This document shows, in pieces, positions 5,293-22,337 of a DNA stretch of 22,337 nt; the first letter of the stretch is position 1; each line of letters opens with the position of its first letter. A program made the translations under genes and the position numbers. The notes under the pieces were generated by a model. The model ran no database searches. It had not been told where the DNA came from and was given only the letters and a program-made list of their open reading frames with translations. This DNA comes from a virus. The stretch is taken from positions 1 through 22,337 of IMG/VR virus record IMGVR_UViG_3300021085_002101. One strand, given 5' to 3'.

Positions 5293-5747
5293 TGGGTTGG
5301 TATAGTGAAGTAAGTCGTGACGTGGGTAGAATACCCGATGCGGTTGCGCATTACGAAAATGAACTTCTTGATGCAAAGAAAGAAGTTAAATTAGTAGGTA
5401 ACGTTGAACGTGCTGCTGCATCTATGCCAGGCATTGTAGAGCATCGCTTCAATCAATTACAAGAGATTGAAGCGGTGCTACACTACTTAAATATTGAGCT
5501 ACGCAGGTTGCGTAGTTCATACTTTAAAAAATATCTAGAAAATTATCAAAGAGCTTTGTCTAGTCGTGACGTTGAAAAATATGTTGACGGCGAAGCAGAT
5601 GTTGTTGACTATGAAAAGATTATTAATGAGTTTGCATTATTGCGTAACAAATGGTTAGGTGTACTTAAAGCACTTGATCAAAAGCAATGGCAAATTACAA
5701 ACGTTGTTAAACTTAGAGTTGCTGGGATGGAAGATGCCAGCCTTTAA
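5292..5747 (+). CDS. uvsY: UvsY recombination mediator
   Basis: Loads UvsX onto gp32-covered ssDNA. The protein has 151 residues, against 137 for T4 UvsY, and is helical and charged. Its C-terminal stretch (LGVLKALDQKQWQITNVVKL) lines up by eye with the T4 UvsY segment around WGILLDFCSGALDAIKSRGF. The middle (RFNQLQEIEAVLHYLNIELR, then YLENYQRALSSRDVEKYVDG) is of the kind seen in marine T4-like phages. Position directly after uvsX supports the call. Its 3' end overlaps the start of the next gene by 14 bases, the junction between the core recombination block and the glycan cassette. Confidence 0.8.
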   Translation: MGWYSEVSRDVGRIPDAVAHYENELLDAKKEVKLVGNVERAAASMPGIVEHRFNQLQEIEAVLHYLNIELRRLRSSYFKKYLENYQRALSSRDVEKYVDGEADVVDYEKIINEFALLRNKWLGVLKALDQKQWQITNVVKLRVAGMEDASL

Positions 5748-6399
5748 GAAAGATGACGATAGATTAATTTACGAATATATTAAAGACACAGCACCGGACA
5801 ACATGTTTATGTTAGACGTAGGTGCAAGAACAGGCAAATGGTGTAAGACATTTGTTACTGAATTTCCAGAAGCAACATTTCATTGTTTTGAGGCTTTACC
5901 AGAACAATACGAAAAATGCAAAAATAGATTTAGAAAAAACAACAATGTTACAGTACATAATTTTGTTATCAGCAATAACTGTAATGAAACAACTTTCTAT
6001 AAAGACACAGACAGACTAGGCTGGAGCGGGTTACAAAAACACTCCTATATGGAGAACTTTGAAGAGTTAACATTACCTAGTAAAACATTAGATAGTTTTC
6101 AATTAACACCTTACTTTGTTAAATTAGATGTAGAAGGCGCAGAGCTACTAGCACTACAAGGCGCATCATTTACATTAAAAACAGCAAAAGTAATTTACTT
6201 TGAATGCAACGAAATACATACAAAAGAGTATAACTATACTAATGATCAACTGTATAATCAATTACGTAACTACGGTTTTACAGTACATGACAAACACTTA
6301 AATGAATTAACAAAAGACGAATTTGTACATCGTACAGCTGATGCAAGACGGTATGAAGATCCAAAAGGCTATGAATCTAATTTTGTAGCTCTGCGTTAA
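5734..6399 (+). CDS. FkbM-family SAM methyltransferase
   Basis: A 221-aa O-methyltransferase, probably acting on a sugar or similar small substrate. The SAM-binding motif is MFMLDVGARTGKW (24-36), followed by an acidic residue ending strand 2 (FHCFEALPEQYEKC). The FkbM hallmark VKLDVEGAELLALQGA lies at 129-144. The frame is open further upstream (a Met at 5659), but homology begins only near MPAFKKDDDRLIYEY, and the ATG at 5734 has a purine-rich GGGATGGA before it, so I chose 5734. It overlaps uvsY by 14 bases and is the first gene of the glycan cassette. FkbM enzymes are common in polysaccharide loci. Confidence 0.85.
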   Translation: MPAFKKDDDRLIYEYIKDTAPDNMFMLDVGARTGKWCKTFVTEFPEATFHCFEALPEQYEKCKNRFRKNNNVTVHNFVISNNCNETTFYKDTDRLGWSGLQKHSYMENFEELTLPSKTLDSFQLTPYFVKLDVEGAELLALQGASFTLKTAKVIYFECNEIHTKEYNYTNDQLYNQLRNYGFTVHDKHLNELTKDEFVHRTADARRYEDPKGYESNFVALR

Positions 6400-6419: not shown

Positions 6420-7202
6420 ATGGAACGTATTGTATTAGTCACAGGTGGATTTGACCCACTACACTCAGGGCACATAGCCTACTTTAAAGCAGCAAAAAAA
6501 CTCGGTACTAAATTAATTGTTGGTATTAATTCAGACGAATGGCTTGCTAGAAAAAAGGGTAAACACTTTATGCCCTTCCATGAAAGATGTTCTATTGTAG
6601 AAGAACTATCTGTTGTTGATCAAGTTATAGGATTTAACGATGACGATGATAGTGCATGTAATGCAATTTTTCAAGCACTTAGTACACATGGAAATATGAA
6701 ATTAATCTTTGCTAACGGCGGAGATAGAACCAACACAACAACACCCGAATATGCTACATATGGTGATATGCCTAATGTAGAATTTGTATTTGGCGTTGGT
6801 GGAGAAGATAAAAAGAACAGTTCATCTTGGATACTAGAAGAATGGAAGGCTCCTAAGACTGTAAGAGAATGGGGCTGGTATAGAGTACTTGATGATCAAC
6901 CTGAACAAGGATACAAAGTAAAAGAACTGGTAATACTACCAGGCAAGCGTCTAAGCGATCAAAGACACAAGTACAGATCAGAGATGTGGTATGTAACACA
7001 AGGTCAAGTAAGCATGGCTATTCAAATAGAAGAGAGTGGCGAACCGCAACAAGGATTTGAATTACCTGCACTAACTAATGGTTATAATATTGGATCAAAT
7101 ATATGGCACAAGGCTATGAATAATCAAGATGTTCCTGCACACGTAATAGAAGTACAATATGGCGAAAAGTGTATTGAAGAAGATATAGAAAGAAGAGATT
7201 AA
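6420..7202 (+). CDS. Cytidylyltransferase-like / cupin fusion protein
   Basis: A two-domain 260-aa protein. Residues 1-140 are a nucleotidyltransferase of the glycerol-3-phosphate cytidylyltransferase/RfaE class: LVTGGFDPLHSGHIAYFKAA contains the HxGH motif at 15-18, GINSDEWLARKKG follows, and NSSSWILEEW (133-142) stands where the second nucleotide-binding signature is expected. Residues 150-250 are a cupin like the C-terminal domain of bifunctional mannose-1-phosphate guanylyltransferase/isomerase: WGWYRVLDDQPEQGYKVKEL, then RLSDQRHKYRSEMWYVTQG with metal-type His183/Glu188, and NIWHKAMN. It could activate a sugar or polyol phosphate and isomerise or bind it. The substrate cannot be deduced. 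Its stop overlaps the next start by one base. Confidence 0.85.
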   Translation: MERIVLVTGGFDPLHSGHIAYFKAAKKLGTKLIVGINSDEWLARKKGKHFMPFHERCSIVEELSVVDQVIGFNDDDDSACNAIFQALSTHGNMKLIFANGGDRTNTTTPEYATYGDMPNVEFVFGVGGEDKKNSSSWILEEWKAPKTVREWGWYRVLDDQPEQGYKVKELVILPGKRLSDQRHKYRSEMWYVTQGQVSMAIQIEESGEPQQGFELPALTNGYNIGSNIWHKAMNNQDVPAHVIEVQYGEKCIEEDIERRD

Positions 7203-7873
7203 TGAAAGTATTCATAGGCTACGACCCAAGAGAAGATATGGCTTACCAAGTGTGTAAGCATAGCATATTGAAGCATCAACCTAACGCAGATGTACGTCCA
7301 CTAGTACAAAAAGAATTAAGACAAGCAGGATGGTACAAGCGTCCTGAAGATAAACTTGCAAGTACAGAGTTTACGTTTACACGTTTTTTAGTACCAGAGC
7401 TTACTAACTTCAGAGGCTGGGCTGTGTTTATGGACTGTGATATGATTCTTACAACAGACATTGCTGAACTGTTTGCACAAGCAGATGACAAGTATGCTGT
7501 TATGTGTGTACAACATGATTACACACCTAAAGAAGGTATTAAGATGGATGGACAAAAGCAAACTATCTATCCACGCAAGAATTGGTCAAGTGTTGTGTTA
7601 TGGAACTGTGGCCACCCTAGTAATAGAGTCGTTGACCAAGATATGGTAAACGAAAAAGAACTTAATGGCGCATACTTTCATAGATTTAGTTGGTTACTAG
7701 ATGACGAAATAGGCGAACTAGATCATACATGGAATTACTTAGTAGGTGTGTATGATGATATTGAAACCCCAAATTTAATTCATTATACTGAAGGCGGTCC
7801 TTGGTTTGAAAACTATAGGGACTGTGAATTTAATGAATTATGGAAACAAGAACTTTATGATATGTTTAAGTAA
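7202..7873 (+). CDS. Glycosyltransferase with DxD motif (GT-A/GT8-like)
   Basis: A 223-aa protein opening MKVFIGYDPREDMAYQVCKH, a GT-A style start seen in GT8-like transferases. FMDCDMILTTDIAEL (76-90) carries the DxD metal/nucleotide-sugar motif Asp78-Cys-Asp80. Later residues NWSSVVLWNCGHP and LDHTWNYLVGVYDDIETPNL, then IHYTEGGPWFENY, fit the acceptor/His-binding part of such enzymes. It probably transfers a hexose from a nucleotide sugar. It is coupled to the preceding fusion gene (TAATG) and overlapped by the next gene. The exact family and sugar are unknown. Confidence 0.82.
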   Translation: MKVFIGYDPREDMAYQVCKHSILKHQPNADVRPLVQKELRQAGWYKRPEDKLASTEFTFTRFLVPELTNFRGWAVFMDCDMILTTDIAELFAQADDKYAVMCVQHDYTPKEGIKMDGQKQTIYPRKNWSSVVLWNCGHPSNRVVDQDMVNEKELNGAYFHRFSWLLDDEIGELDHTWNYLVGVYDDIETPNLIHYTEGGPWFENYRDCEFNELWKQELYDMFK

Positions 7874-8648
7874 AAATCTTACTGACGAATATATAAACAT
7901 GTATGCTAAAGGTGCAAACTTGCCTATACATAATTATGACTTTGAACATGAAAATAAAAAAGCACCAATACTAATACGTAGCCTAGCAAAACGTAAACTC
8001 ATATGGAAATGTTTAGAAAATAAAAGAGACTTTTATTATATGGACAGCGGCTATGTAGGAAATTATAAAGGTCCAGTAAATCCAATGGGATGGAAACTAT
8101 ATCATCGCATAGTTAAAAACGATCTACAACATAACGAAATAATTGAACGTCCTAGTGATAGATGGGAACAACTAGGAATAAAAATTGAGAAACGAAAGAA
8201 GCACGGCGAAAATATTTTACTTGTTATGCCTAGTGAGAAGCCTTGCAAGTATTACGGTATAGACGCAGAAAAATGGAAACAAGAAACAATAGAACAAATT
8301 AAGATGCATACAGATCGTCCTATTGTTGTTAGAGAAAAACAACCAAGACATGTACGTTTGCAAAATACAATATATCAAGAATTAGATAATGCATATGCGT
8401 TAGTAACCTATCAGAGCATAGCGGCTGTAGAAAGTGTGTTGTATGGCGTACCAGCTTTTACACTTGCACCAACAGCTGCTGATCCTGTTGCTAATAAGTA
8501 CCTGTACAATCTAGAAAAACCCGAGCGGTACGACAAAGACTATATCTATAGTTGGGCATGCCACCTAGCATATGGACAGTTTCATATTAATGAAATGAAA
8601 AACGGAACAGCTCATAAATTTATAATGGAGGAACTTTATGGCAATTAA
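7857..8648 (+). CDS. Capsule/Kdo-transferase-like protein, TDRPI paralog 1
   Basis: A 263-aa member of a paralog family with four copies in this window. Shared features: a strand ending in HTDRPIVVREKQPR (151-164), then LDNAYALVTYQSIAAVESV (176-194) and YGVPAFTLAP. This order resembles the C-terminal sugar-nucleotide half of KpsS/KpsC-like capsule transferases (basic-Pro motif, then a VT-x-S segment and GxPxF). The N-terminal part has YYMDSGYVGNY and an LYHRIVKNDLQHNE segment. The frame extends upstream to 7806, but the ATG at 7857 overlaps the previous stop by 17 bases and gives a sensible N-terminus (MICLSKNLTDEYINMY). In this copy the usual HPR is QPR. The function is inferred. Confidence 0.72.
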   Translation: MICLSKNLTDEYINMYAKGANLPIHNYDFEHENKKAPILIRSLAKRKLIWKCLENKRDFYYMDSGYVGNYKGPVNPMGWKLYHRIVKNDLQHNEIIERPSDRWEQLGIKIEKRKKHGENILLVMPSEKPCKYYGIDAEKWKQETIEQIKMHTDRPIVVREKQPRHVRLQNTIYQELDNAYALVTYQSIAAVESVLYGVPAFTLAPTAADPVANKYLYNLEKPERYDKDYIYSWACHLAYGQFHINEMKNGTAHKFIMEELYGN

Positions 8649-9555
8649 GTATGTAGTAGTTCATAGAGCTGATAAAAATAATATCGGTGATATGTCAAGT
8701 AATCCCTTGCAATATTATTTGCCAGCAAGTGATTATCAAGTAATAGATGTATTAGATATTGGAGCATCAAATTATCCTAGTGATGTGCCGTTAATTGCAG
8801 GCGGTGGCGGCCTAATAGGAAATCAATTTTTAGGAAATGATTTACAATATGCTCTTAACAACAGTGACCAAAACGCATTGATGACATTGTGGAAAGAGTC
8901 GTGGTCAGTAGTAAACCATAATAACATAAATGCACGTGATGAATTTTTACGTAAATTACAACCGTTAATAAAAGAATATATAGATAAAATAGACAACAGT
9001 ACAGCACCACGTATTGTATGGGGCGCTGGTCATAACGAAGATACTAATAAAAGAGTAAAGCGACCTCAATGGCCAGATTGGTTAAGTAATTTTGATCTAA
9101 TAGGCGTAAGAGATTATGGACAACCTTTTGAATGGGTACCGTGTGCAAGTTGTTTAGACACAGCATTTGATAAAAATTATAGAATTAAAAATGATATAAT
9201 TTGGTACGAACATAAAAAACAATTAATAAAATCTACACATTTTGGAAGTAAACCTATTCCTAGATATATTAATAGTGGTGCTAACATGGAGCAAACTATT
9301 GAATTATTAGGTAGTGCAAATACTATTATTACTAACAGTTACCACGGTGCATACTGGGGTACGTTGCTAGGCAAGAAAGTTATTGTAGCAGGACCTTGGA
9401 GTAGTAAATTTCATACACTCAAACACAGAGTAACATTTATTAATCCTCAAGATAATTATGAATACTTGTTAGACAGTATAGAAACTCATCCTGAAGCATT
9501 ACAAGAATGTAGAGATGCAAATAATAACCATTGGCAAAAGATACAACAACTATGA
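8638..9555 (+). CDS. Polysaccharide pyruvyl transferase family protein
   Basis: A 305-aa protein of the family that adds ketal pyruvate to surface polysaccharides using PEP. Visible family marks: NNIGDMSSNPLQYY near the N-terminus (14-27), a glycine-rich LIAGGGGLIG (52-61), IVWGAGHN (126-133), LIGVRDYG (154-161), CASCLDTAFD (169-178) and the late TNSYHGAYWGTLLGKKVIV (232-250), whose His236 matches the conserved catalytic-site His. A strong GGAGGA (8627-8632) sits 5 bases before the ATG, and the start overlaps the previous gene by 11 bases. It implies that the glycan built here carries a negative pyruvyl group. The sugar acceptor is unknown. Confidence 0.85.
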   Translation: MAIKYVVVHRADKNNIGDMSSNPLQYYLPASDYQVIDVLDIGASNYPSDVPLIAGGGGLIGNQFLGNDLQYALNNSDQNALMTLWKESWSVVNHNNINARDEFLRKLQPLIKEYIDKIDNSTAPRIVWGAGHNEDTNKRVKRPQWPDWLSNFDLIGVRDYGQPFEWVPCASCLDTAFDKNYRIKNDIIWYEHKKQLIKSTHFGSKPIPRYINSGANMEQTIELLGSANTIITNSYHGAYWGTLLGKKVIVAGPWSSKFHTLKHRVTFINPQDNYEYLLDSIETHPEALQECRDANNNHWQKIQQL

Positions 9556-10466
9556 AAACTGTAGTCGGATATGCATTGGGTGTTCCTAACCCGCATAAAA
9601 ATAAACATAAAGTTGATATTTTAAAACGTTACATTGACGGCGTACAAAAGTGCGGCGACAAAGGTATATTACATTTTGGAAATAATATTATTGATAGTGA
9701 TGTAAATTTAATCCAAGGTTGGGTACATGCAGGATCTGCTGCTAGTCCACACTTAGTATTAAGAAGGCGAGCACACGAAATTAATATCAACAAAGGAAAA
9801 CATTCATTTATTGCTGATAGTAATTTGTTTAACTATGCTGTAGGTAAAATGCACAACATGCAATATTTAAGATATAGCATGGACGGAGTATTTCCTACAA
9901 CAGGAAATTATTTTAGCGATACAGTAAATCCAAAAAGATGGAAGCAAATACAAAAGCATCTTGGCATTACAATGAAAGACTGGCGCCCGCAAGGTGTACA
10001 TGTTTTAATTTGTACACAACGTAACGGTGGCTGGAGTATGGGCGGCATAGGTGTTGTAGACTGGCTAACTAGAACAATCAAACAAGTTAGAAAACATACT
10101 GACAGACCAATTATAGTGCGCGGTCATCCAGGTGACAAGCATGCACCTAAGTATCTTAAAAACAAAGATTGGCAAGTAAGTACAGCACCATCTCTTGTAG
10201 ATGATCTAAGAAATGCACATTGTTCTATTACATATAACAGTAGCCCAAGTGTTGCAAGTGCTATAGAAGGTATTCCAACATTTGTTACAGACCCTAACCC
10301 ACAAGTAAGTCAAGCACATGCTGTTGCTAACACTGACTTATCTTTACTTGAAAATCCATTAATGTTTGAAAGAACAGAATGGGTGCAAAAGTTAGCAATG
10401 TGCCATTGGAACTTTGATGAATTAAGTTCAGGCGAAGCGTGGTCACACATGAGGGATTATGTATGA
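9552..10466 (+). CDS. Capsule/Kdo-transferase-like protein, TDRPI paralog 2
   Basis: A 304-aa paralog. The chosen ATG at 9552 forms an ATGA overlap with the preceding stop; an upstream in-frame Met at 9531 looks less natural. The C-terminal half carries HTDRPIIVRGHPGD (182-195), RNAHCSITYNSSPSVASA (220-237) and EGIPTFVTDP (239-248), ending in WNFDELSSGEAWSHMRDYV. The middle segment (PKRWKQIQKHLGITMKDWRP, then VHVLICTQRNGGWSMGG) is closely mirrored in the next gene, so paralogs 2 and 3 look like a tandem duplication. It is probably a sugar transferase with a KpsS/KpsC-like fold; the donor is unproven. Confidence 0.72.
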   Translation: MKTVVGYALGVPNPHKNKHKVDILKRYIDGVQKCGDKGILHFGNNIIDSDVNLIQGWVHAGSAASPHLVLRRRAHEININKGKHSFIADSNLFNYAVGKMHNMQYLRYSMDGVFPTTGNYFSDTVNPKRWKQIQKHLGITMKDWRPQGVHVLICTQRNGGWSMGGIGVVDWLTRTIKQVRKHTDRPIIVRGHPGDKHAPKYLKNKDWQVSTAPSLVDDLRNAHCSITYNSSPSVASAIEGIPTFVTDPNPQVSQAHAVANTDLSLLENPLMFERTEWVQKLAMCHWNFDELSSGEAWSHMRDYV

Positions 10467-11413
10467 TAAAGATGATAGGCTTTCCGCCTCCAGCTTCTAA
10501 ACCTTATTTCCATTGGGCTAAAGGTATGGAAAAAGTAGGCGACCAGTACATAGTAAGTGACGACCTAGATAGTAGTGTTGTACGTGATGCCGATGCATTT
10601 TATCAAACAAACGAACTAAAGCCAAAATTCTTACACGGCGGAAGAGCAGATTGGCATGGCAAATATCTTCTACACATTCAAGCTGCAGGCAAACCCTATA
10701 TAGTTAGTGAAAGCGAGCCGTTTAGAGAGCACCCTGGTTGGCTACGTTTTGGGTGGAACAGTTATCGCTGGAATGATGCAAACTGGAATAATGATAATGT
10801 AGGACCTGAGCGTTGGAATCGATTTGAAAGCATGACTGGTATAAAATTTAAAGACTGGCACAGTCCCGGAGGAAACATTCTTATTATGGGGCAAAAAGAA
10901 GGCGACAGTAGTTTAGTAAATATATACAAAGCGGGATATGCAAGTGTGTACGACTGGATTGCAGAACAATGTAAAACTATTAGAATGTATACTGATCGTC
11001 CAATAGTTATACGTCCACATCCTCGTAACTTGGATAGGGGTGCAAAAATAGTAACACAATTGTTGAAGAAGACAAACCTTACTAATATAACAATGAGTCC
11101 TAATCTTACAAGAGGAGGCTCACAAGGCGGCGAAGGTTTAGATAAAGATCTAAAAAATGCATATTGTGTAGTTACATATAATAGTTTAAGTGGTGTTGAG
11201 GCTGTAGTAAAAGGCATACCAGTATTTGCATTAGACGGTGGAAGTATGGCATGGCCAGTAGCACACACTGACCTTTCAAAGATTGAAAGTTTAAATTATA
11301 ATATAGACTTGCAAGATTGGAAAAACAAAATAGCATATAGTATGTGGAACAAAAAAGATGTACAAACAGGAGAATGTTGGTCACATCTAAAACAAGTTTA
11401 TTTTAAGGATTAA
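10463..11413 (+). CDS. Capsule/Kdo-transferase-like protein, TDRPI paralog 3
   Basis: A 316-aa paralog starting by ATGA overlap at 10463; the in-frame Met at 10439 lies well inside the previous gene. Shared blocks: PERWNRFESMTGIKFKDWHS (115-134), NILIMGQKEGDSS (138-150), YTDRPIVIRPHPRN (176-189), KNAYCVVTYNSLSGVEAVVK (231-250) and GIPVFALDGG (251-260), ending WNKKDVQTGECWSHLKQ. A 37-base stretch coding for the TDRPI block (10990-11026) is identical to one in paralog 4. Relative to paralog 2 it carries an extra Gly/Ser-rich loop (LTRGGSQGGEG). The assignment to a capsule-type transferase fold is motif-based inference. Confidence 0.72.
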   Translation: MIKMIGFPPPASKPYFHWAKGMEKVGDQYIVSDDLDSSVVRDADAFYQTNELKPKFLHGGRADWHGKYLLHIQAAGKPYIVSESEPFREHPGWLRFGWNSYRWNDANWNNDNVGPERWNRFESMTGIKFKDWHSPGGNILIMGQKEGDSSLVNIYKAGYASVYDWIAEQCKTIRMYTDRPIVIRPHPRNLDRGAKIVTQLLKKTNLTNITMSPNLTRGGSQGGEGLDKDLKNAYCVVTYNSLSGVEAVVKGIPVFALDGGSMAWPVAHTDLSKIESLNYNIDLQDWKNKIAYSMWNKKDVQTGECWSHLKQVYFKD

Positions 11414-13322: not shown

Positions 13323-13827
13323 CATTACTCGTCATAGAAGCAATAGAGATTTTTGGAATGATGAAAGAGAGTGCTATCGACGACTAGCAGACTGTCCGCA
13401 TGTTCCTAATCTTATTTCTTCTAATACAACACACTTAACAATAACAACCGAATATGCTGGTGAAAGTTTATTCATACTTACAGCGGTTCAAAAAAAGACA
13501 AACATTAAAATTGATAAACCAATAAGTCAAATAGTAAAATTTATTGATGCTTGTAAACAACAAAACATTGTGCATTTAGATTGTCATCCTGGTAATGTAT
13601 TATTACTGGACGGTAAACTTTCAATAATAGATTTTGAAAAAGTTGCAATAGATGGCAAAACACGAAATACAAAAATGCAGAAAAAATATAAAAAATTTAT
13701 GGGTGCTGGTGGTTGGGATTGGATACTAAATAGATATATGAAATACTTTGAAACCTACAATAACCATATTTGGTTTAATGAGGACGTTTTAGAAAAGGGA
13801 ATAAGAAAATATGGCAAAGCATTATAG
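13315..13827 (+). CDS. Small kinase-like protein (WaaP/KdkA- or APH-like), N-lobe reduced
   Basis: A 170-aa protein with a kinase-fold C-lobe. VHLDCHPGNVLLLDGKLSII (86-105) is the catalytic loop HxDxxxxN, followed by IDFEKV (105-110), the DFG equivalent. This is the arrangement of lipopolysaccharide heptose/Kdo kinases and aminoglycoside-type kinases. The glycine-rich ATP loop and the conserved strand-3 Lys are not apparent; the protein starts close to where helix C (FWNDERECYRRLADC) would be. The ATG at 13315 is preferred; an upstream in-frame Met at 13264 adds 17 residues lying wholly inside the HAD gene and no Gly loop. It may be a minimal kinase or a degenerate one. Confidence 0.65.
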   Translation: MDNITRHRSNRDFWNDERECYRRLADCPHVPNLISSNTTHLTITTEYAGESLFILTAVQKKTNIKIDKPISQIVKFIDACKQQNIVHLDCHPGNVLLLDGKLSIIDFEKVAIDGKTRNTKMQKKYKKFMGAGGWDWILNRYMKYFETYNNHIWFNEDVLEKGIRKYGKAL

Positions 13828-14353
13828 TAAGTTTACAAACAACTACACAAAGATTTATTATAAAAATAAACTTATAGCTGACGGGTCACGAGATCCATTA
13901 GAAAGAATACATGCTATGCCAATTGACTTTCATAATAAAACATTATTAGACTTAGGGTGTAATTGCGGCGGTACATTGTTTGCTGTAGCAGACAAAATTA
14001 AACAAGGCTGGGGTTGTGATATTAATCCGGGTGCAATACAATTTGCAAACAATTTAGCACAAGAGAATAAAATTGATAATGTTTCTTTTGGAGTTACTGA
14101 TCTTAACAACTGGCAGGACGCTAACCTTCCTAAAACAGATATACTATTTGCACTAGCAATTGCAAAATGGGTTCCTACATGGAAAGAAATAATTACACAC
14201 CTTGATCCTAAAGTATGTGTGTTTGAAGCACACGGCAAAGGAAGTATGGTGCCTGATCAAGTTGCTTGGTTAACAAATCATTTTAAGAATGTAGAAGTAA
14301 TACTTGATGGCTACGAAGCAGGCAAACGCAGACTTTATCTTTGCGTCCAGTAA
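13811..14353 (+). CDS. SAM-dependent methyltransferase (class I)
   Basis: A 180-aa methyltransferase. KTLLDLGCNCGGTLFAVADK (43-62) is motif I, and GWGCDINPGAIQFANNLA gives the motif II acidic residue and following helix. DILFALAIAKWVPTWKEII holds the motif IV/V region, and the fold ends with YEAGKRRLYLCVQ. The unusual start NNYTKIYYKNKLIADGSRDP suggests a substrate-binding N-terminus. It overlaps the kinase-like gene by 17 bases. Its end overlaps the end of the minus-strand glycosyltransferase by 19 bases, so the two are convergent. It could methylate a sugar or a small molecule. Confidence 0.8.
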   Translation: MAKHYSKFTNNYTKIYYKNKLIADGSRDPLERIHAMPIDFHNKTLLDLGCNCGGTLFAVADKIKQGWGCDINPGAIQFANNLAQENKIDNVSFGVTDLNNWQDANLPKTDILFALAIAKWVPTWKEIITHLDPKVCVFEAHGKGSMVPDQVAWLTNHFKNVEVILDGYEAGKRRLYLCVQ

Positions 14354-15197: not shown

Positions 15198-15208
15198 TGT
15201 ATATGGAA

Positions 15209-15216
15209 GTATTTAA
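15209..15216 (-). promoter_or_regulatory. Late-type box TTAAATAC, minus direction
   Basis: On the minus strand TTAAATAC (15216 down to 15209) would start transcription near 15204, giving a 27-base leader with the Shine-Dalgarno AAGAGGAAC before the ATG at 15177. It matches the T4 late consensus TATAAATA in core positions. Confidence 0.45.
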
Positions 15217-15219
15217 CCA

Positions 15220-16092
15220 ATGATTTTCTGCCTGTATACTGATCATGGCGCACTAAACAGTCAACCTGTTTTTCATGCATTTGCAAAGAGTGTCGTCGAT
15301 GCTGGGCATACTGTAATTTATAACGAACCTTATAGAGTCGGTGATCATTATAGTAATTATGATGTTGCTGTTATATGGAGTGTACTATGGCACGGTAGAA
15401 TGGCAAAGAACAAAACAATATGGGAACAAAATCGTTTACATAATAGACCAGTAATTGTTTTAGAAGTAGGCGCACTTAATAGAGGCACTATGTGGAAGGT
15501 CGGTGTTAATGGCATTAATAGAGATGCATATTTTGCTCCTAAAAATAATAACAACGAACGTGCAAACATGTTAGGTTTAAAAATGCAACCGTGGACACAT
15601 AATGAAGACGGTCATATTGTTATTTGTTTACAACACAATAAAAGTCAACAATGGGCAAACATGCCGCCGCAAGATAAATGGTTAGATAAAACATTGTCTA
15701 CTATACGCAAACGTACTGATCGTCCAATAGTTATACGTCCACATCCTCGTTGTCCAATTGTACCTTTTGCAGACAAGTATGAAAACATAAAGGTACAACA
15801 TCCAAAGAAAAATGATACTACATATGACGATTATGAGTTTAACGTGTCTGGCGCATATGCTGTTGTAAGTTGGAGTTCTAATCCTGCTATACATGCTATA
15901 CTACAAGGCGTACCAGCGTTTACAGGACCAAGTAGTCTAGCATACGATGTATCACAACATAATGTTAAAGACATTAATAATCCTATAAGACCTGACAGAA
16001 CGCAATGGCTTAATGACCTTGCACATACTGAATACAGTACACACGAAATAGCTGCAGGTTACCCATTAAAACACTTGACATCACAACTGTAA
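15220..16092 (+). CDS. Capsule/Kdo-transferase-like protein, TDRPI paralog 4
   Basis: A 290-aa paralog. Its N-terminus (MIFCLYTDHGALNSQPVFHA) looks like the first strand of a GT-B domain, and the region IVLEVGALNRGTMWKVGVNG (79-98) resembles an acceptor loop. The shared C-terminal blocks are RTDRPIVIRPHPR (165-177), SGAYAVVSWSSNPAIHAIL (210-228), QGVPAFTGPSS (229-239) and a final segment around TQWLNDLAHTEYSTHEIAAG. The DNA for the TDRPI block matches paralog 3 exactly over 37 bases. It is divergent from the minus-strand glycosyltransferase. It is the last gene of the main cassette; the -35 box of the next operon's promoter lies inside its 3' end. Confidence 0.74.
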   Translation: MIFCLYTDHGALNSQPVFHAFAKSVVDAGHTVIYNEPYRVGDHYSNYDVAVIWSVLWHGRMAKNKTIWEQNRLHNRPVIVLEVGALNRGTMWKVGVNGINRDAYFAPKNNNNERANMLGLKMQPWTHNEDGHIVICLQHNKSQQWANMPPQDKWLDKTLSTIRKRTDRPIVIRPHPRCPIVPFADKYENIKVQHPKKNDTTYDDYEFNVSGAYAVVSWSSNPAIHAILQGVPAFTGPSSLAYDVSQHNVKDINNPIRPDRTQWLNDLAHTEYSTHEIAAGYPLKHLTSQL

Positions 16093-16103
16093 TCAGTTAT
16101 AAT
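16075..16103 (+). promoter_or_regulatory. Perfect consensus sigma70 promoter for the uvsW operon
   Basis: TTGACA (16075-16080) and TATAAT (16098-16103) are separated by 17 bases, a full match to the bacterial consensus at both boxes. It overlaps the last codons of the preceding gene and precedes an AGGAG (16121-16125) for the TTG start at 16135. It should make the 414-aa gene and uvsW early genes transcribed by host RNA polymerase. Confidence 0.85.
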
Positions 16104-16134
16104 AGTTAGTATATTACAGCAGGAGACCCTAGGT

Positions 16135-17379: not shown

Positions 17380-18829
17380 ACTAATTATTGAAGATGAAGT
17401 AAACATCAAACTAGAAGGACTAGAGGTAGATGTACGAAGAAAACTTGCGAACGCTCTTAAGTTCGAAGTGCCTTATGCAAAGTACATGCCACAATATAAA
17501 CTAGGACGCTGGGATGGTAAGGTTGCTTTCTTTGGTATTGGTGGCACTGGCTATGTTAACCATCTTGATGTTGTTAGCAATGTGCTTGCAAAAAATAATG
17601 TTGAAATAGTAGACATTGAAGATAAGCGACATCCAATACAGTTGACTTTCCCAACTATTACAGAACGCTATTGGGCAGATCAAGATGTACGTTGGCCTAA
17701 AGGTCATCCAGCAGAAGGTGAAGAAATAATTCTGCGTGACTATCAAGTAGAAGCAATTAACAACTTTTTAAAACATCCACAAAGTTTACAAGAGATTGCG
17801 ACAGGTGCAGGTAAAACAATTACTACAGCAACACTGTCGCATATAAGTGAGCCATACGGACGTAGTCTTGTTATTGTGCCTAACAAATCGTTAGTGACAC
17901 AAACAGAGGAAGACTACATTAACTGTGGCTTAGATGCTGGGGTGTACTTCGGCGACAGAAAAGAGTTAGGTAAGACTCACACTATATGCACTTGGCAAAG
18001 TTTAAACATACTTGACAAGAAGCATAAGGACGGAACAGCCGTTTTATCACTGGCTGAGTTCTTAGAAGGTGTAAGCACTATTATTGTCGACGAAGTACAC
18101 CAGGCAAAGGCAGAAGTGCTAAAAAACTTACTAACACGTAACTTGCGTAATGCTCCAATACGTTGGGGACTAACTGGTACTATACCTAAAGAAAAGTTTG
18201 AGTTTGAAAGTATTCATGCTAGTTTAGGTCCTGTGATTGGTCAGATTAGTGCAAAGGAATTACAGGACAAAGGTGTATTATCACAGTGTCATGTTAATGT
18301 GTGTCAATTAATTGATACAGTAGCACACAGAGATTATCAATCAGAATTAAAATACTTAACAACAGATAAAAAACGTTTAGAGTATGTAGGCAAATTATTA
18401 AACACAGTAAAAGATTCAGGCAACACATTAATATTAGTAGATAGAATTAGTGCCGGCGAAGCACTAGCAGAATTGATCCCAGGATCAGTTTTTGTAAAAG
18501 GCGATGTAAAATTAAAAGATCGCAAGGAGGCATATGATGAAATCAATGAAGGAACTAACCACGTGGTTATCGCAACATACGGGGTCGCGGCTGTGGGTAT
18601 TAACATACCGCGTATTTTTAATCTTGTTCTTATTGAGCCTGGCAAAAGTTTTGTCCGGGTAATCCAATCTATAGGCAGAGGCGTAAGAAAGGCAAAAGAC
18701 AAAGACTTTGTGCAAATTTGGGATATCACTTCAACGTGCAAATTTGCAAAGAGACATCTAACACAACGAAAAAAATTCTATAAGGAAGCACAATATCCTT
18801 TCACTATAGAAAAAATTGATTGGAACTAA
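17366..18829 (+). CDS. uvsW: UvsW-type ATP-dependent helicase
   Basis: Superfamily 2 helicase that branch-migrates recombination intermediates, unwinds R-loops and helps switch from origin-dependent to recombination-dependent replication in T4. It has 487 residues from the ATG at 17366; the longer frame to 17315 lies inside the upstream gene. Motif I is EIATGAGKT (143-151), motif II VDEVH (241-245), motif III GLTGT (268-272), motif V region ATYGVAAVGINIP (403-415) and motif VI IQSIGRGVRK (433-442). The N-terminal domain (about 1-110, with YMPQYKLGRWDGKVAFF) matches the substrate-binding part of UvsW. Length is close to T4 UvsW. Confidence 0.93.
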   Translation: MASCRLIIEDEVNIKLEGLEVDVRRKLANALKFEVPYAKYMPQYKLGRWDGKVAFFGIGGTGYVNHLDVVSNVLAKNNVEIVDIEDKRHPIQLTFPTITERYWADQDVRWPKGHPAEGEEIILRDYQVEAINNFLKHPQSLQEIATGAGKTITTATLSHISEPYGRSLVIVPNKSLVTQTEEDYINCGLDAGVYFGDRKELGKTHTICTWQSLNILDKKHKDGTAVLSLAEFLEGVSTIIVDEVHQAKAEVLKNLLTRNLRNAPIRWGLTGTIPKEKFEFESIHASLGPVIGQISAKELQDKGVLSQCHVNVCQLIDTVAHRDYQSELKYLTTDKKRLEYVGKLLNTVKDSGNTLILVDRISAGEALAELIPGSVFVKGDVKLKDRKEAYDEINEGTNHVVIATYGVAAVGINIPRIFNLVLIEPGKSFVRVIQSIGRGVRKAKDKDFVQIWDITSTCKFAKRHLTQRKKFYKEAQYPFTIEKIDWN

Positions 18830-18832
18830 AAT

Positions 18833-19339
18833 ATGAGAATACTTACACTTGAAAACAAATGTTTTCATCTTGATAAATTACCAGAAGAAATAGATGAGGA
18901 TATACGTTTCAGTGTGCTTGATAATTCAGATCCTAAGGAACCAGATTTTTTCTTTATTCCTTTAATCTTTTTAGAATCATTTAGCGCACCTGCTATGGTC
19001 CTTAATATAAACGGACACGAAATTACAATGCCAGTTGATTGGCATATTGCTGTAGGCGACCACGAAGCTGGAATGGACTTAGAAGTCTTACCCTTAACTA
19101 GTTTAAATGACAGAGGCTTCGAAGCATGGTTGTTTAATCCATTAACAGGATTTAAATCAGATTACGGACGTATAGAAATTGTTAATTTTTATAATGATGT
19201 AAAATGGTATTTTCCTAAAATGAAAAACGGACAACTATTAAGTATGCCGCTAACAGATGGCGACCAACCAGAATGTGTATTTGTAGCAAAAGATATTACT
19301 CGACAAAGCGAAGTAATAGAATACGCATCATTAATATAA
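18833..19339 (+). CDS. Conserved-looking phage protein of unknown function (168 aa)
   Basis: A 168-aa protein I cannot name. It starts 3 bp after uvsW and is probably in its operon. It has a mostly beta-type pattern: FFFIPLIFLESFSAPAMVLN (39-58), NGHEITMPVDWHIAVGDHE (60-78), LEVLPLTSLNDRGFEAWLFN (83-102), and IEIVNFYNDVKWYFPKMKNG (114-133). The clean, slowly varying sequence style suggests a conserved marine T4-like phage protein rather than a recent import, but I cannot confirm this. No catalytic motif is evident. Confidence 0.78.
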   Translation: MRILTLENKCFHLDKLPEEIDEDIRFSVLDNSDPKEPDFFFIPLIFLESFSAPAMVLNINGHEITMPVDWHIAVGDHEAGMDLEVLPLTSLNDRGFEAWLFNPLTGFKSDYGRIEIVNFYNDVKWYFPKMKNGQLLSMPLTDGDQPECVFVAKDITRQSEVIEYASLI

Positions 19340-19349
19340 AGGAAAGACT

Positions 19350-19706
19350 ATGGGAATTAAAGCAGGAAAAATCTGGGGCAATACAGAATTAGTACATGCT
19401 AACGGTGTACTAGAATTTCACCGCATTGAATTTAACAAAGGGTTTAAATGTTCTGAACACGAACATGAATTTAAATGGAATGGCTTTTTTGTAGAGTCAG
19501 GCAAGATGATTGTACGTGTTTGGCAAGATGACCAAGATGGGTTAGTTGATGAAACTATTTTAGAAGCCGGCGACTTTACACAAGTAAAGCCTGGCAAGAT
19601 ACATCAGTTTGAAGGACTCGAAGATGGTGTAGCATTTGAACTTTATTGGGCTGAATTTAATCACAACGATATTGTTAGACGCACTGTAGGATCGTCAGTG
19701 AAATAG
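19350..19706 (+). CDS. Small cupin-domain protein
   Basis: A 118-aa single-domain cupin. Motif 1 is GFKCSEHEHEFKWNGFFVES (31-50) with the two His of HxH (37, 39), and motif 2 is AGDFTQVKPGKIHQF (73-87) with its His85. Together these fit a mononuclear metal site. Such small cupins accompany sugar-isomerase or nucleotide-sugar functions, and the C-terminal cupin of the fusion protein at 6420 is a second example in this window. AAGGAAAG lies just before the ATG. The reaction is unknown. Confidence 0.82.
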   Translation: MGIKAGKIWGNTELVHANGVLEFHRIEFNKGFKCSEHEHEFKWNGFFVESGKMIVRVWQDDQDGLVDETILEAGDFTQVKPGKIHQFEGLEDGVAFELYWAEFNHNDIVRRTVGSSVK

Positions 19707-19707
19707 A

Positions 19708-20235
19708 ATGTATTCATTGAAGTATATAGAAGAACTTCGTGTTATACATGCTGACAGAAGTCGAACAAAAGGTTTCGGCGGCAAAACTAAGAACCTTGGT
19801 AAGTTCCATAAGTATGTTGAACAATGGCAACCTTTAACGCTACTAGATTACGGTTGCGGTAAAGGTGGCATTCTATCTGACTTAGAGTCAAGGTACAGAC
19901 ATATCAAATGCACAGGATACGATCCTGCTGTAATGATGTTTGCTAATGAACCTCAGCAAGCTGAATGTGTCTTTAGTAATGATGTGCTAGAACACATTGA
20001 ACCAGAGTATCTAAACCAAGTACTTACACATATAGATACGTTAAGTACAAAGTACATATGGTTACGCATAGACACTAGACCTGCACGTAAAAGATTAAGT
20101 GATGGAAGAAATGCACACTTAATACTAGAAGACCAGGCATGGTGGACAAATCAAATCAGTACATATATAAAGGGTATTATAGTTTACAATAATTTAAATA
20201 ATAAAGGAAAACTAGATGTTGCAATCGAAAGATAA
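19708..20235 (+). CDS. SAM-dependent methyltransferase
   Basis: A 175-aa class I methyltransferase. LTLLDYGCGKGGILSDLE (43-60) is motif I, KCTGYDPAVMMFAN (67-80) motif II, and FSNDVLEHIEPEYLNQVL (89-106) is the usual NDVLEHI motif. The N-terminus HADRSRTKGFGGKTKNLGKF is Lys/Arg/Gly-rich and may hold a substrate-binding region. It starts 1 bp after the cupin and overlaps the next gene by 20 bases. It is probably for a small molecule or sugar; similar small methyltransferases recur in marine phage accessory regions. Confidence 0.82.
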   Translation: MYSLKYIEELRVIHADRSRTKGFGGKTKNLGKFHKYVEQWQPLTLLDYGCGKGGILSDLESRYRHIKCTGYDPAVMMFANEPQQAECVFSNDVLEHIEPEYLNQVLTHIDTLSTKYIWLRIDTRPARKRLSDGRNAHLILEDQAWWTNQISTYIKGIIVYNNLNNKGKLDVAIER

Positions 20236-20491
20236 AATGATTCCAGGCGAAGCACTAATATACGAAAGAGCAGACGGAGTTGTATATGCAAGATATAGAG
20301 ATGCTCCACATAATAAAACGCCTCGCTGGATTATAGGCGGCGACCCTGCCGGCGTTGCTAGAGCACAAGGCGATTTGCTAAGTTATGCTGAATGGCAAGA
20401 ACTATGTGAGCTGTCGTTGAACTATCCAACTTTAAAGAAGTTATTGGACCAAGTAGTAACAACTTACTATACTGTTAAGGACGCTCAATGA
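20216..20491 (+). CDS. Small protein of unknown function (91 aa)
   Basis: I do not recognise it. A 91-aa protein with a beta-rich first half (GEALIYERADGVVYARYRDA, then PRWIIGGDPAGVARAQGDLL) and a helical second half (SYAEWQELCELSLNYPTLKK). The ATG at 20216 has AAGGAAA upstream; an ATG at 20237 is an alternative that trims 7 residues. It overlaps the methyltransferase by 20 bases and the oxygenase by ATGA. The position suggests a conserved small phage protein; no function can be stated. Confidence 0.7.
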   Translation: MLQSKDKMIPGEALIYERADGVVYARYRDAPHNKTPRWIIGGDPAGVARAQGDLLSYAEWQELCELSLNYPTLKKLLDQVVTTYYTVKDAQ

Positions 20492-21081
20492 TACACCACG
20501 AAGCATGCGTAAGTAAGATGACACTAATACAATTAGAACGTAGTAGTAAACTGTTGTCAGACTTAGTGACAGATAGATTTGACGAGTTTTATAAAACCTT
20601 TCCTAAGGGTTATATGAATTTTGCAGAAGGTAGTCGTAGTACACAATTATATGAAGCATATAATGTGTTCCTAAGTCACTACCCAGGCTTTTCTGATTTG
20701 TATCGATCTATTGTACCTGTAATTAAATCAAAGATACCAAACTGGCAAGAATATGCTCTTGCAGGTTGGGTTAATATATACAACAAAGGCGGATATCTAA
20801 ATTGGCACAAGCATGGTCCTGAGAATCAAGTACATGACGGTAGGTGGCACGGATATGTTTGTATAAATGCAGAACCTAGTCAAACAATGTATAGAGACAA
20901 AGAAGAAGTTGTTAAAACAATTGATAACCAAGATGGTTACATAACACTTAGTCCAGCAGGACTATATCATCGTGTTAGCGAGTGGGAGAAGGATCAGCCT
21001 CGTGTAACAATAGCATTTGATATTATCAAACGCGAACAAATAGATCCTTTATTATTAAATAGATGGATACCAATAATATGA
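20488..21081 (+). CDS. 2-oxoglutarate/Fe(II) oxygenase-like protein
   Basis: A 197-aa protein of the marine-phage 2OG-Fe(II) oxygenase type. A double-stranded beta-helix core is suggested by WVNIYNKGGYLNWHKHGPEN (94-113), HGYVCINAEPSQTMY (121-135), GYITLSPAGLYHRVSEWEKD (150-169) and PRVTIAFDI (171-179). The likely metal ligands are in WHKHG (His107/His109) and His161, with Arg172 for the 2-oxoglutarate carboxylate. The first ligand pair is HxH rather than the common HxD. The substrate is unknown; related phage enzymes may hydroxylate nucleic acid, protein or sugar. It overlaps the next gene by ATGA. Confidence 0.72.
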   Translation: MIHHEACVSKMTLIQLERSSKLLSDLVTDRFDEFYKTFPKGYMNFAEGSRSTQLYEAYNVFLSHYPGFSDLYRSIVPVIKSKIPNWQEYALAGWVNIYNKGGYLNWHKHGPENQVHDGRWHGYVCINAEPSQTMYRDKEEVVKTIDNQDGYITLSPAGLYHRVSEWEKDQPRVTIAFDIIKREQIDPLLLNRWIPII

Positions 21082-21302
21082 GACATAAATTAGCAGGCGT
21101 ACTATTCTTACTATTAGGAATATACTTTTTAATACCAGACTTAATGCCACCTTCAATGGGTGCAGGCGCGGCAATGGAACACGAAATGCCGACACATAAT
21201 AATACATTATTAGGCATTGGCGAAATGACTTGGATGTGGTTTACAATGGCACTAGTACATTTCATTATACGTGATTGTAATTGTAAGGAGTGTTGTAAGT
21301 GA
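21078..21302 (+). CDS. Small two-TM membrane protein with His/Met- and Cys-rich ends
   Basis: A 74-aa protein starting by ATGA overlap at 21078 (an in-frame ATG at 21063 would add five residues but overlaps more). Residues 5-22 form a hydrophobic helix (LAGVLFLLLGIYFLIPDL), and residues 47-65 a second (GEMTWMWFTMALVHFII). The loop between has MGAGAAMEHEMPTHNN, rich in Met/His, and the C-terminus is RDCNCKECCK with four Cys. It could bind metal or anchor a complex in the inner membrane. I do not recognise the family. It overlaps the kdsA start (GTGA). Confidence 0.7.
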   Translation: MRHKLAGVLFLLLGIYFLIPDLMPPSMGAGAAMEHEMPTHNNTLLGIGEMTWMWFTMALVHFIIRDCNCKECCK

Positions 21303-22072
21303 GAATAATTGCAGGACCTTGTCAACATGAATCGTTGCCACAAAGTTTAGAGATTGCTCGAGAGTGTAAACGTGTATGCGACAAGCATGGTATTGAATAC
21401 ATATTCAAAGCAAGTTACGACAAAGCCAATCGCTCAAGCGAAAGTGGTATTCGTGGTCTAGGATTAGAAACAACGCTACTAGACTTCCTAGCACTTAAAG
21501 TAGAACTAGGTATAAAGACATTAACTGATGTACACGACTATGTACAAGTTGCACGTATTGAAAGAGAATTTAAAGATGCTGTAGATGTATATCAGATACC
21601 TGCATTCTTGTGTAGACAGACTGATTTGATTAAAGCAGCTTGTGCTACAGATAAAATTGTTAACATTAAAAAAGGACAATTCTTAGCACCTTGGGATATG
21701 AAAGGTGTGCTAAGTAAAACAGAAGGCGCTAAAGACGTCTGGATAACTGAAAGGGGAACTAGTTTTGGCTATAACACTCTTGTCGTTGACTATACTGGTA
21801 TTATGTATATGCTTGACAATTTTAAATCTGATGTTGTATTTGACTGTACGCACTCTGCACAAAAACCCGGAGGACAGGGGAATAGCTCAGGCGGCAATCG
21901 TGACTACGTGCCTGGGTTGGCTCGTGCTGGGAGTGCTCTTGGGGTTAAGAGTTTTTTCTTGGAAGTCCATCCTAATCCTGATGTAGCACCAAGCGACGGC
22001 CCTAACATGCTACGCTTAGAAGACTTTGAGGAGGTTGTAGATGACATCGTCCGTTATTCTTATACCCGCTAG
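21299..22072 (+). CDS. kdsA: 3-deoxy-D-manno-octulosonate-8-phosphate synthase
   Basis: Condenses arabinose-5-phosphate and PEP to Kdo-8-phosphate. The 257-aa protein follows the family end to end: IAGPCQHES (4-12), IFKASYDKANRSS (35-47), LTDVHDYVQ, IPAFLCRQTDLI, VNIKKGQFLAPWDM, ITERGTSFGYNTLVVD, VFDCTHSAQKPG, GLARAGSALGVKSFFLEVHP and SDGPNML. Cys8 in IAGPC replaces the Asn of E. coli KdsA, the mark of the metal-dependent class. The start is GTG at 21299 with AAGGAG at 21285-21290. It overlaps the previous gene by GTGA and kdsB by 32 bases, so the two Kdo genes are coupled. Confidence 0.93.
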   Translation: MRIIAGPCQHESLPQSLEIARECKRVCDKHGIEYIFKASYDKANRSSESGIRGLGLETTLLDFLALKVELGIKTLTDVHDYVQVARIEREFKDAVDVYQIPAFLCRQTDLIKAACATDKIVNIKKGQFLAPWDMKGVLSKTEGAKDVWITERGTSFGYNTLVVDYTGIMYMLDNFKSDVVFDCTHSAQKPGGQGNSSGGNRDYVPGLARAGSALGVKSFFLEVHPNPDVAPSDGPNMLRLEDFEEVVDDIVRYSYTR

Positions 22073-22337
22073 ATATAACAGCACACGCATGCCTGGAAAG
22101 CCATTGGCTATGTTAGATGGCGTTCCTATGATAAAACGTGTGTATGACGCTTGTATTGCGTCTAAGATACCAACATACGTGCTTACCGATGACATGCGTA
22201 TCTTTAATTTATTTGGCCCTAGACAGTGTTGGATTGATCAAGAAAAAGAATATGCTAACGGTACAGAAAGATGTGCAGCCGCAATTACTGATTCAAACTT
22301 TATTAAGTACCTTGGCCATTACGACAATATTATTAAT
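22041..22337 (+). CDS. kdsB: CMP-Kdo synthetase (3' truncated by window end)
   Basis: Activates Kdo with CTP to CMP-Kdo. The first 99 codons are present and open to the window edge. VILIPARYNSTRMPGKPLAM (5-24) is the nucleotide-binding start of KdsB, followed by MIKRVYDAC, YVLTDDMRI and EYANGTERCAAAI (the NGTERC segment matches the SGTxRCAEA motif). GAGGAGG lies 6 bases before the ATG at 22041, inside the end of kdsA. It was too near the edge to be seen as a complete frame. The length cannot be judged. Confidence 0.9.
   Translation, partial: MTSSVILIPARYNSTRMPGKPLAMLDGVPMIKRVYDACIASKIPTYVLTDDMRIFNLFGPRQCWIDQEKEYANGTERCAAAITDSNFIKYLGHYDNIIN

What the first reader, a model, noticed from the sequence alone, without database searches (positions are those of the whole stretch)
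21299..22337. Phage-encoded Kdo activation pair (kdsA-kdsB) alongside capsule-type transferases
KdsA and the start of KdsB overlap in a T4-like phage genome whose core genes are close by. Kdo is a hallmark sugar of Gram-negative LPS and some capsules, and host cells already make it, so a phage copy suggests extra flux or a new Kdo-glycan. With four capsule/Kdo-type transferase paralogs, a pyruvyl transferase and several methyltransferases in the same window, a dedicated glycan pathway is plausible. Seen: the genes and motifs. Known: KdsA/KdsB reactions. Inferred: that they form one pathway that alters the host envelope or virion.
Basis: partly seen in the sequence, partly recalled or inferred. 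Interest (0 to 1): 0.75.

Follow-up and report, generated by a model that had tools for sequence, protein, structure and literature searches.

The report
Phage-made Kdo sugar and its transferases
A large marine phage lineage carries its own long-diverged versions of the two enzymes that make and activate Kdo, a sugar of bacterial outer surfaces, near unusual sugar-attaching enzymes shaped like known Kdo transferases, which suggests (but does not prove) that these viruses build a Kdo-containing coat on the host or on themselves.

Summary
kdsA (21299-22072) is a clear Kdo-8-P synthase. The 3' gene is the start of a kdsB, cut by the record's end; a 99.98%-identical contig (L005) completes it (232 aa). 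It matches only KdsB models, below their curated cut-offs, and a conserved Mg-ligand Asp is Asn in 83 of 83 marine-phage copies. The pair is common in marine phages (312 stretches; 48 of 56 spanning loci of this lineage). In the tree, 34 of 35 sampled IMG/VR phage KdsA form one long-stemmed clade spread over different phage contexts.

The four "capsule/Kdo-type" transferases are real paralogs. Models of two match retaining beta-Kdo transferases (KpsC, WbbB, KrkA) above every other solved fold listed. Only 10463-11413 has the full QXXXD + RXHP signature.

One pathway is not shown: paralogs persist in 5 of 6 loci without kdsA, and 13 kdsA-bearing records of other contexts show none (fragments). 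The most constant companion of kdsAB is a small cupin. An unrelated 462-kb phage combines kdsA, kdsB, a KdsD-like isomerase, a KpsC-like transferase and a pyruvyl transferase. Best reading: phage-boosted CMP-Kdo feeds phage transferases; product unknown. New variant of a known kind.

The parts
21299..22072 (+). kdsA, Kdo-8-phosphate synthase, metal-type residues Cys8, His185, Glu222, Asp233
   Evidence: NF003543 and TIGR01362 over cut-off; residues invariant in 16 phage rows; aligns with solved KdsA
22041..22337 (+). kdsB-like CMP-Kdo synthetase, first 99 aa, cut by the record's end
   Evidence: completed by L005:4444-5142
21063..21302 (+). small gene (79 aa) whose stop overlaps the kdsA start
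   Evidence: no PHROG
19350..19706 (+). small cupin, the most constant companion of kdsAB
   Evidence: Cupin_2 31.8 bits; cupin in 78 of 80 kdsA loci
10463..11413 (+). transferase paralog class IV: QKEGD + RPHP, predicted retaining beta-Kdo-type transferase
   Evidence: motifs, model, fold matches; orthologs hit by PF05159
15220..16092 (+). transferase paralog class I: QHNKS + RPHP, no nucleophile Asp
9564..10466 (+). transferase paralog class II: QRNGG + RGHP, no nucleophile Asp
   Evidence: start uncertain (ORF listed from 9531)
7872..8648 (+). transferase paralog class III: neither motif
   Evidence: weak DUF6716, 16.9 bits, below cut-off; start uncertain (ORF listed from 7806)
8638..9555 (+). 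polysaccharide pyruvyl transferase
   Evidence: PF04230 30.8 bits, cut-off 25.3
6420..7202 (+). nucleotidylyltransferase (HldE/TagD-like) fused to a mannose-6-P-isomerase-type cupin
   Evidence: PF01467 52.6 and PF01050 59.1 bits
7202..7873 (+). GT8-type glycosyltransferase
   Evidence: PF01501 27.2 bits, cut-off 24.3
5737..6399 (+). FkbM methyltransferase
   Evidence: PF05050 64.2 bits
11416..12099 (+). methyltransferase
   Evidence: PF13578 28.7 bits, cut-off 26.3
13811..14353 (+). methyltransferase
   Evidence: PF13847 41 bits
19708..20235 (+). methyltransferase
   Evidence: PF13489 31.8 bits
14335..15246 (-). conserved island gene (cluster 7), perhaps a glycosyltransferase by its DADT motif (a guess)
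   Evidence: no Pfam or PHROG match; conserved in position
16075..16103 (+). perfect sigma-70 consensus TTGACA-N17-TATAAT before the run 16135..kdsB
   Evidence: consensus only; 40 promoter-like sites found there against 28.8 expected

Best explanation
A jumbo T4-related marine phage lineage makes CMP-Kdo during infection. Phage KdsA condenses host arabinose-5-phosphate with PEP to Kdo-8-phosphate, host KdsC removes the phosphate, phage KdsB activates Kdo to CMP-Kdo. Phage cytoplasmic transferases of the retaining beta-Kdo-transferase fold consume it: most clearly the class IV enzyme (10463-11413), whose QXXXD aspartate would attack CMP-Kdo and pass Kdo to an acceptor glycan. That glycan is shaped by the GT8, pyruvyl- and methyltransferases of the same island and ends on host glycolipid/LPS or on a virion protein. 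Shown: gene identity, conservation, fold and motif match. Inferred: activities, that these transferases use this CMP-Kdo, and the place of the product. The confidence is for the joint claim (supply plus use by phage transferases); for CMP-Kdo supply alone I would say about 0.85.
For: KdsA over two equivalog cut-offs with conserved metal-site residues. KdsB-like partner kept with it: 48 both, 7 neither, 1 kdsB only in 56 spanning loci (Fisher p 3e-8, related loci not independent); PF02348 in 11 of 15 records with kdsA and 0 of 12 without, including L173 and L181 where kdsA and a CTP_transf_3 gene are unlinked. Purifying selection. Transferase models: the first 23 (class I) and first 15 (class IV) PDB rows are all retaining beta-Kdo transferases; Z 14.6 and 14.7 against 10.1 and 10.7 for the best other fold. 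Class IV has QXXXD + RXHP in 16 of 16 scanned loci. PF05159 hits in 5 IMG/VR records; four lie in class IV genes, one over cut-off (20.8 against 20). LR756500 holds kdsA, kdsB, a KdsD-like SIS protein, a PF05159 protein with QIKTD + KPHP and a pyruvyl transferase within about 8 kb.
Against: Paralogs remain in 5 of 6 loci without kdsA; 13 kdsA-bearing records of other contexts have no paralog (fragments). Classes I-III lack the nucleophile. Class IV in only 12 of 35 loci with both Kdo genes. KdsB below all curated KdsB cut-offs and an unusual Asp-to-Asn at a metal ligand. L072's 65.5-kb record has kdsA but no PF02348. No KdsC, WaaA, or (outside LR756500) SIS gene found. TM-scores are modest (0.35-0.57) and sequence identity 9-16%. 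No exporter identified.
Confidence: 0.45

Rival explanations
1. Flux booster for the host's own LPS: phage KdsA and KdsB only top up CMP-Kdo for host WaaA, keeping the outer membrane growing during a long jumbo-phage infection. The transferase island makes an unrelated glycan.
For: kdsAB found in 13 records with no paralog; paralogs independent of kdsAB; only two pathway enzymes carried, so the rest is the host's; kdsA and kdsB listed as common surface-water viral LPS genes in PMC10653327 (passages).
Against: Transferases of precisely the CMP-Kdo-using fold in the same genomes; LR756500 combines supply and a KpsC-like transferase in one cluster.
Confidence: 0.32
2. A different sugar: the divergent KdsB (Asp-to-Asn, below cut-offs) activates a Kdo derivative or another ulosonate, and the nucleophile-less transferases use that CMP-sugar.
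For: Asn in 83 of 83 marine copies, Asp in S-SCSM2R and LR756500; long stem of phage KdsA; KdsB 101 bits against TIGR00466 cut-off 155.2; a second CTP_transf_3 gene, fused to RraA, in two related contigs; retaining pseudaminate transferase in the same superfamily (PMC12887879, passages).
Against: KdsA itself is over the Kdo-8-P synthase cut-offs; the only KdsB matches of full-length phage copies are KdsB models.
Confidence: 0.13
3. Mobile cargo without a glycan role: kdsAB-cupin is a travelling accessory set kept for another reason, for example draining PEP or arabinose-5-phosphate.
For: KdsA of the lineage is interleaved with KdsA from other phage contexts; kdsAB missing in 7 of 56 spanning loci.
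Against: Purifying selection on kdsA, kdsB, cupin and transferases (dN/dS 0.05-0.27); both Kdo steps kept together even when unlinked.
Confidence: 0.1

Closest known systems
KpsC / WbbB / KrkA retaining beta-Kdo transferases (GT107, GT99, GT140)
   Same: overall fold of two modelled phage paralogs; class IV has QXXXD and RXHP
   Different: 9-16% identity; classes I-III lack the nucleophile; no capsule kps operon, WaaA or identified exporter; phage genes
Bacterial KdsA / KdsB
   Same: family models and conserved residues
   Different: marine phage KdsA clade on a long stem; KdsB below cut-offs with Asn at a metal ligand
Viral kdsA/kdsB listed as auxiliary metabolic genes (PMC10653327; kdsA in PMC11018836; passages only)
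   Same: same gene names in marine viruses
   Different: those passages list genes; no clade, partner or transferase is described in them
Huge phage LR756500 and Synechococcus phage S-SCSM2R
   Same: annotated-collection phage records with kdsA and kdsB; LR756500 adds KdsD-like, KpsC-like and pyruvyl transferase genes; S-SCSM2R has a GT8-like gene nearby
   Different: their KdsA falls outside the marine clade, KdsB keeps Asp, and the paralog profile finds nothing in either

Membership tests
KdsA (Kdo-8-phosphate synthase) | score over curated equivalog cut-off | tested here: met
   327.8 (242) and 319 (314) bits
KdsA (Kdo-8-phosphate synthase) | metal-site residues of the metal-dependent type (their role is recalled) | tested here: met
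   Cys8, His185, Glu222, Asp233 invariant in 16 rows, aligned with solved enzymes
KdsA (Kdo-8-phosphate synthase) | catalysis of PEP + arabinose-5-P | not testable with these tools
   needs an assay
KdsB (CMP-Kdo synthetase) | score over curated cut-off | tested here: not met
   full-length L005: five KdsB models, best 161.3 against 193; TIGR00466 101.3 against 155.2; PF02348 82.3 against 22.6 is met. Hence 'KdsB-like'
KdsB (CMP-Kdo synthetase) | two strictly conserved Asp metal ligands (PMC3149649) | tested here: not met
   first Asp in 85 of 85, second Asn in 83 of 83 marine copies; mapping by alignment to E. coli KdsB
Retaining beta-Kdo transferase | fold | tested here: met
   models of class I and class IV only; classes II and III by homology
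Retaining beta-Kdo transferase | QXXXD nucleophile motif, class IV | tested here: met
   QKEGD; 16 of 16 loci
Retaining beta-Kdo transferase | QXXXD nucleophile motif, classes I, II, III | tested here: not met
   Ser 46, Gly 38, no Gln 24 of 113; so these are relatives by fold, not members
Retaining beta-Kdo transferase | (K/R)XHP CMP motif | tested here: met
   classes I, II, IV (89 of 113); absent in class III
Retaining beta-Kdo transferase | general-base Glu | tested here: inconclusive
   class IV has a Glu in VSES, but no residue-level superposition was available
Pfam Capsule_synth PF05159 | gathering score | tested here: not met
   window paralogs: no match; one class IV ortholog passes at 20.8 against 20
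Complete Kdo pathway | KdsD and KdsC in the same phage | tested here: inconclusive
   no SIS in 47 IMG/VR records, no KdsC in 40 records, most are fragments; SIS/KdsD-like in LR756500

The most novel reading that the evidence does not exclude
Marine jumbo phages carry a phage-enriched glycosyltransferase family descended from retaining beta-Kdo transferases, with a matching phage-only CMP-Kdo supply. One class keeps the covalent double-displacement chemistry; the nucleophile-less classes (Ser or Gly in QXXXD, CMP motif kept) have become single-displacement enzymes that would invert CMP-beta-Kdo to alpha-Kdo. Together they build a pyruvylated, methylated Kdo glycan on the host surface or virion that shuts out competing phages or shields the particle.
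Probability: 0.2. Interest if true: 0.85.

Novelty: new variant of a known kind. Interest (0 to 1): 0.6.

Why it matters
Kdo genes in viral metagenomes have been listed as auxiliary genes; in the passages I saw no consumer is named. Here the supply pair is a phage clade, and candidate consumers with the fold, and in one class the catalytic motifs, of a mechanistically unusual enzyme group sit in the same genomes. That makes a concrete, testable claim: phages may make a Kdo glycan of their own. The nucleophile-less paralogs also offer a natural experiment on how the double-displacement mechanism can be lost or changed.

Tried and rejected
Cupin as a Kdo-specific third enzyme (for example a non-SIS arabinose-5-phosphate isomerase): attractive because it accompanies kdsAB in 78 of 80 loci and in several contexts, but of 79 cupin-sampled loci 14 have kdsA and kdsB, 5 kdsA only, 5 kdsB only and 55 neither within the flank (many contigs end early). 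It is broader; kept only as a possible partner.

Transferases strictly tied to kdsAB: rejected as stated (5 of 6 loci without kdsA keep them). Class IV tied to kdsAB: 12 of 35 loci with both genes, 0 of 3 with neither, 0 of 1 with one; too few to judge.

The paralog profile matched 2 of 240 genomes of one bacterial class at E<=1e-6. TATAAATA late-promoter motif: 1 found, 3.8 expected. Acinetobacter MD-2021a 'phage' kdsA: the one record opened shows it among bacterial housekeeping genes; both records set aside. The ten hits at 26-28% were not followed (a guess: DAHP synthases). Two short gut records with kdsB-like hits were not followed. PDB search with the paralog profile gave three rows, E 0.03 or worse, taken as chance; class IV alone gave one row at E 1.2; the cupin profile gave none. 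PADLOC gave weak kinase and methyltransferase hits only. PHROGs: no family for KdsB or the paralogs, 20 bits to a DAHP-synthase family for KdsA.

Papers: PMC10653327, PMC12887879, PMC10148158, PMC9587256, PMC9123017, PMC3149649, PMC11018836 were seen as passages. Searches for phage Kdo genes or transferases in print: in an open-access library; listings beyond these papers were not opened.

Rows dropped: one search kept the best 80 of 312. Searches covered 49 records (47 behind the 80 loci, mainly the longest, plus two phages). One search left out L062 (already held); of 80 loci, 56 reach the genes beyond kdsB, 43 of these with 4 kb or more upstream. Tree: 97 of 174 rows with an aligned piece over 200 aa; 60 of 72 non-marine-phage rows at random (MD-2021a among the 72), 37 phage rows chosen by context from 102; quick method. 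L221's KdsA (44%) falls outside the clade with S-SCSM2R, a join the program flags as doubtful. L073 has a KdsA identical to L075's in another context at a contig end; it may be a chimera. L295: kdsB by tblastn but no PF02348 match in its record.

Full report
What is there. The window is a whole 22,337-base IMG/VR record. kdsA lies at 21299-22072 with a GTG start overlapping the stop of the preceding 79-aa gene. It scores 327.8 bits against NF003543 (cut-off 242) and 319 against TIGR01362 (cut-off 314). kdsB starts at 22041, overlaps kdsA by 32 bases, and is cut by the record's end. L005, another IMG/VR record, matches window 17598-22337 at 99.98% and contains the whole kdsB, 232 aa.

Quality of the pair. 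KdsA keeps Cys8, His185, Glu222 and Asp233 in all 16 aligned phage rows and aligns nearly full length with solved KdsA enzymes; the metal role of these residues is recalled. Full-length KdsB matches five NCBIfam models, all KdsB, none at its cut-off. The first metal Asp is present in 85 of 85 copies; the second is Asn in 83 of 83 marine copies and Asp in S-SCSM2R and LR756500, against Asp in E. coli KdsB. PMC3149649 calls the two ligands strictly conserved (passages). dN/dS is 0.09-0.25 for the two genes.

How common. A scan of IMG/VR found 312 stretches encoding relatives; the best 80 are 74-100% identical. In the annotated phage collection 14 records match KdsA; I take two as real phage genes, S-SCSM2R and LR756500. 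To avoid sampling on kdsA I sampled on the neighbouring helicase (best 80 of 400). Of those loci 56 reach the genes beyond kdsB: 48 have kdsA, kdsB and cupin, 4 cupin alone, 3 none, 1 kdsB and cupin. So the two Kdo genes are almost always kept or lost together. Where kdsA stands without kdsB beside it in L173 and L181, a CTP_transf_3 gene lies elsewhere in the record. Of 27 records searched for both, 11 of 15 with kdsA have PF02348 and 0 of 12 without. The four misses are a record in which kdsA is cut at the contig end, two of 9.7 and 14.3 kb, and L072's 65.5-kb record.

Origin. In a quick tree of 97 KdsA rows, 34 of the 35 IMG/VR phage rows form one clade (SH-aLRT 100) on a stem of 1.13 changes per column; L221 falls outside, in a doubtful long-branch pair with S-SCSM2R. 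Rows of the window's lineage (10) are interleaved with rows from other contexts (24): 7 label changes, 5 forced by starred branches. This looks like an old phage gene pool that moves between phages rather than a recent host gene.

Neighbours. The common order in the lineage is: nucleotidylyltransferase-cupin fusion, GT8, paralog, paralog, cluster-7 gene, paralog, unknown gene, helicase, unknown gene, cupin, (transporter), small gene, kdsA, kdsB. In other contexts (L027-L029, L038, L043-L045, L062, L064) the helicase block is absent from the flank, but kdsA, kdsB and cupin are still close together. Cupin is in 78 of 80 kdsA loci, but it is also frequent without kdsAB (55 of 79 cupin-sampled loci have neither gene).

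The transferases. The four paralogs belong to one family with 113 members in 46 loci. AlphaFold models with family alignments are good (class I: pLDDT 87.2, pTM 0.86; class IV: 84.6, 0.84). The first 23 PDB rows by Foldseek for class I and the first 15 for class IV are all retaining beta-Kdo transferases, with modest TM-scores (0.35-0.57). The second aligner agrees: class I Z 14.6 KpsC, 13.8 WbbB, 11.2 KrkA against 10.1 for the best other row; class IV 14.7, 13.8, 13.3 against 10.7. The group is defined by QXXXD (Asp nucleophile) and (K/R)XHP (PMC10148158, PMC12887879; passages). The 113 fall into class I, QXXXS + RXHP, 46; II, QXXXG + RXHP, 38; III, neither, 24; IV, both complete, 5; the window has one of each. 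A scan with the class IV protein gave 16 loci, all with both motifs. By sequence, PF05159 matched 5 of 47 IMG/VR records; by coordinates four of the five hits lie in class IV genes, one over cut-off. The window's own copies match no Pfam or NCBIfam family apart from weak DUF6716 for class III.

One pathway? For: same genomes and region, fold and motif fit, and a distant case. LR756500 has kdsA (344 bits, cut-off 242), kdsB (NF003952 276, cut-off 193), an SIS protein matching KpsF/KdsD/GutQ best though below cut-off, a PF05159 protein with QIKTD and KPHP, and a pyruvyl transferase, within about 8 kb. Against: paralogs are in 42 of 43 helicase-sampled loci with enough flank, including 5 of 6 without kdsA. 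Paralogs were found in 20 of 42 records; 13 kdsA-bearing records of other contexts had none, though all are fragments. Class IV was in 12 of 35 loci with both Kdo genes. Paralogs could use host CMP-Kdo, so this does not exclude the chemistry, but co-loss gives no support.

Missing steps. SIS was found in LR756500 only, 1 of 49 records; KdsC and WaaA in 0 of 40. Arabinose-5-phosphate and the phosphatase must then come from the host.

Best reading. Phage KdsA and KdsB raise CMP-Kdo during infection; class IV, and perhaps classes I and II, attach it to a glycan that the island's other enzymes also shape. The run from 16135 to kdsB follows a perfect sigma-70 consensus at 16075-16103, which would fit host-polymerase expression; a consensus match only. 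Whether the product sits on host surface or virion is open.

Novelty. kdsA and kdsB as viral genes are in print as list entries (PMC10653327; kdsA in PMC11018836), and LPS genes of marine jumbo phages have been proposed to change the host surface (PMC9123017). In the searches made I saw no account of the phage KdsA clade, the KdsB substitution or phage proteins of the retaining Kdo transferase fold. I rate it a new variant of a known kind.

Noticed in passing
L059:10764-11741 and 10 other loci, between kdsA and kdsB: A uroporphyrinogen decarboxylase gene (PF01208, 216 bits for L059) sits between kdsA and kdsB in 11 of the 80 loci; role unknown.
   Followed up: partly
L011:9066-9746 and 26 other loci, before kdsA: A YhhQ/Vut_1-type transporter (PF02592, 87.7 bits for L011; queuosine-precursor transport is recalled) lies near kdsA in 27 loci.
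   Followed up: no
L003 (LR756500), 10616-17951: A 462-kb phage has its own Kdo cluster: KpsC-like transferase, pyruvyl transferase, kdsA, kdsB and a KdsD-like SIS protein with an unassigned N-terminal part.
   Followed up: partly
L347:14301-15605 (strand -); second PF02348 hit also in G002: A CTP_transf_3 domain fused to an RraA-like domain, perhaps a second CMP-sugar enzyme, in the glycan island of two related contigs.
   Followed up: no
window 13264-13827: A protein-kinase-like gene (PF00069, 34.9 bits) inside the island, with weak matches to PD-T4-6 and other kinase models of PADLOC.
   Followed up: no
window 20488-21081: A putative 2OG-Fe(II) oxygenase (PF13759, 29.3 bits) just upstream of kdsA.
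   Followed up: no
L303, record of 275,366 bases: A jumbo contig of the lineage without kdsA, PF02348 or paralogs in the record and without the cupin in its 19-kb locus: a natural comparison.
   Followed up: partly
family of the Vulcanococcus genome (L098): TIGR01362 (KdsA) is over cut-off in 60 of 151 genomes of this cyanobacterial family sample, so a cyanophage kdsA such as S-SCSM2R's may meet hosts with or without their own.
   Followed up: no
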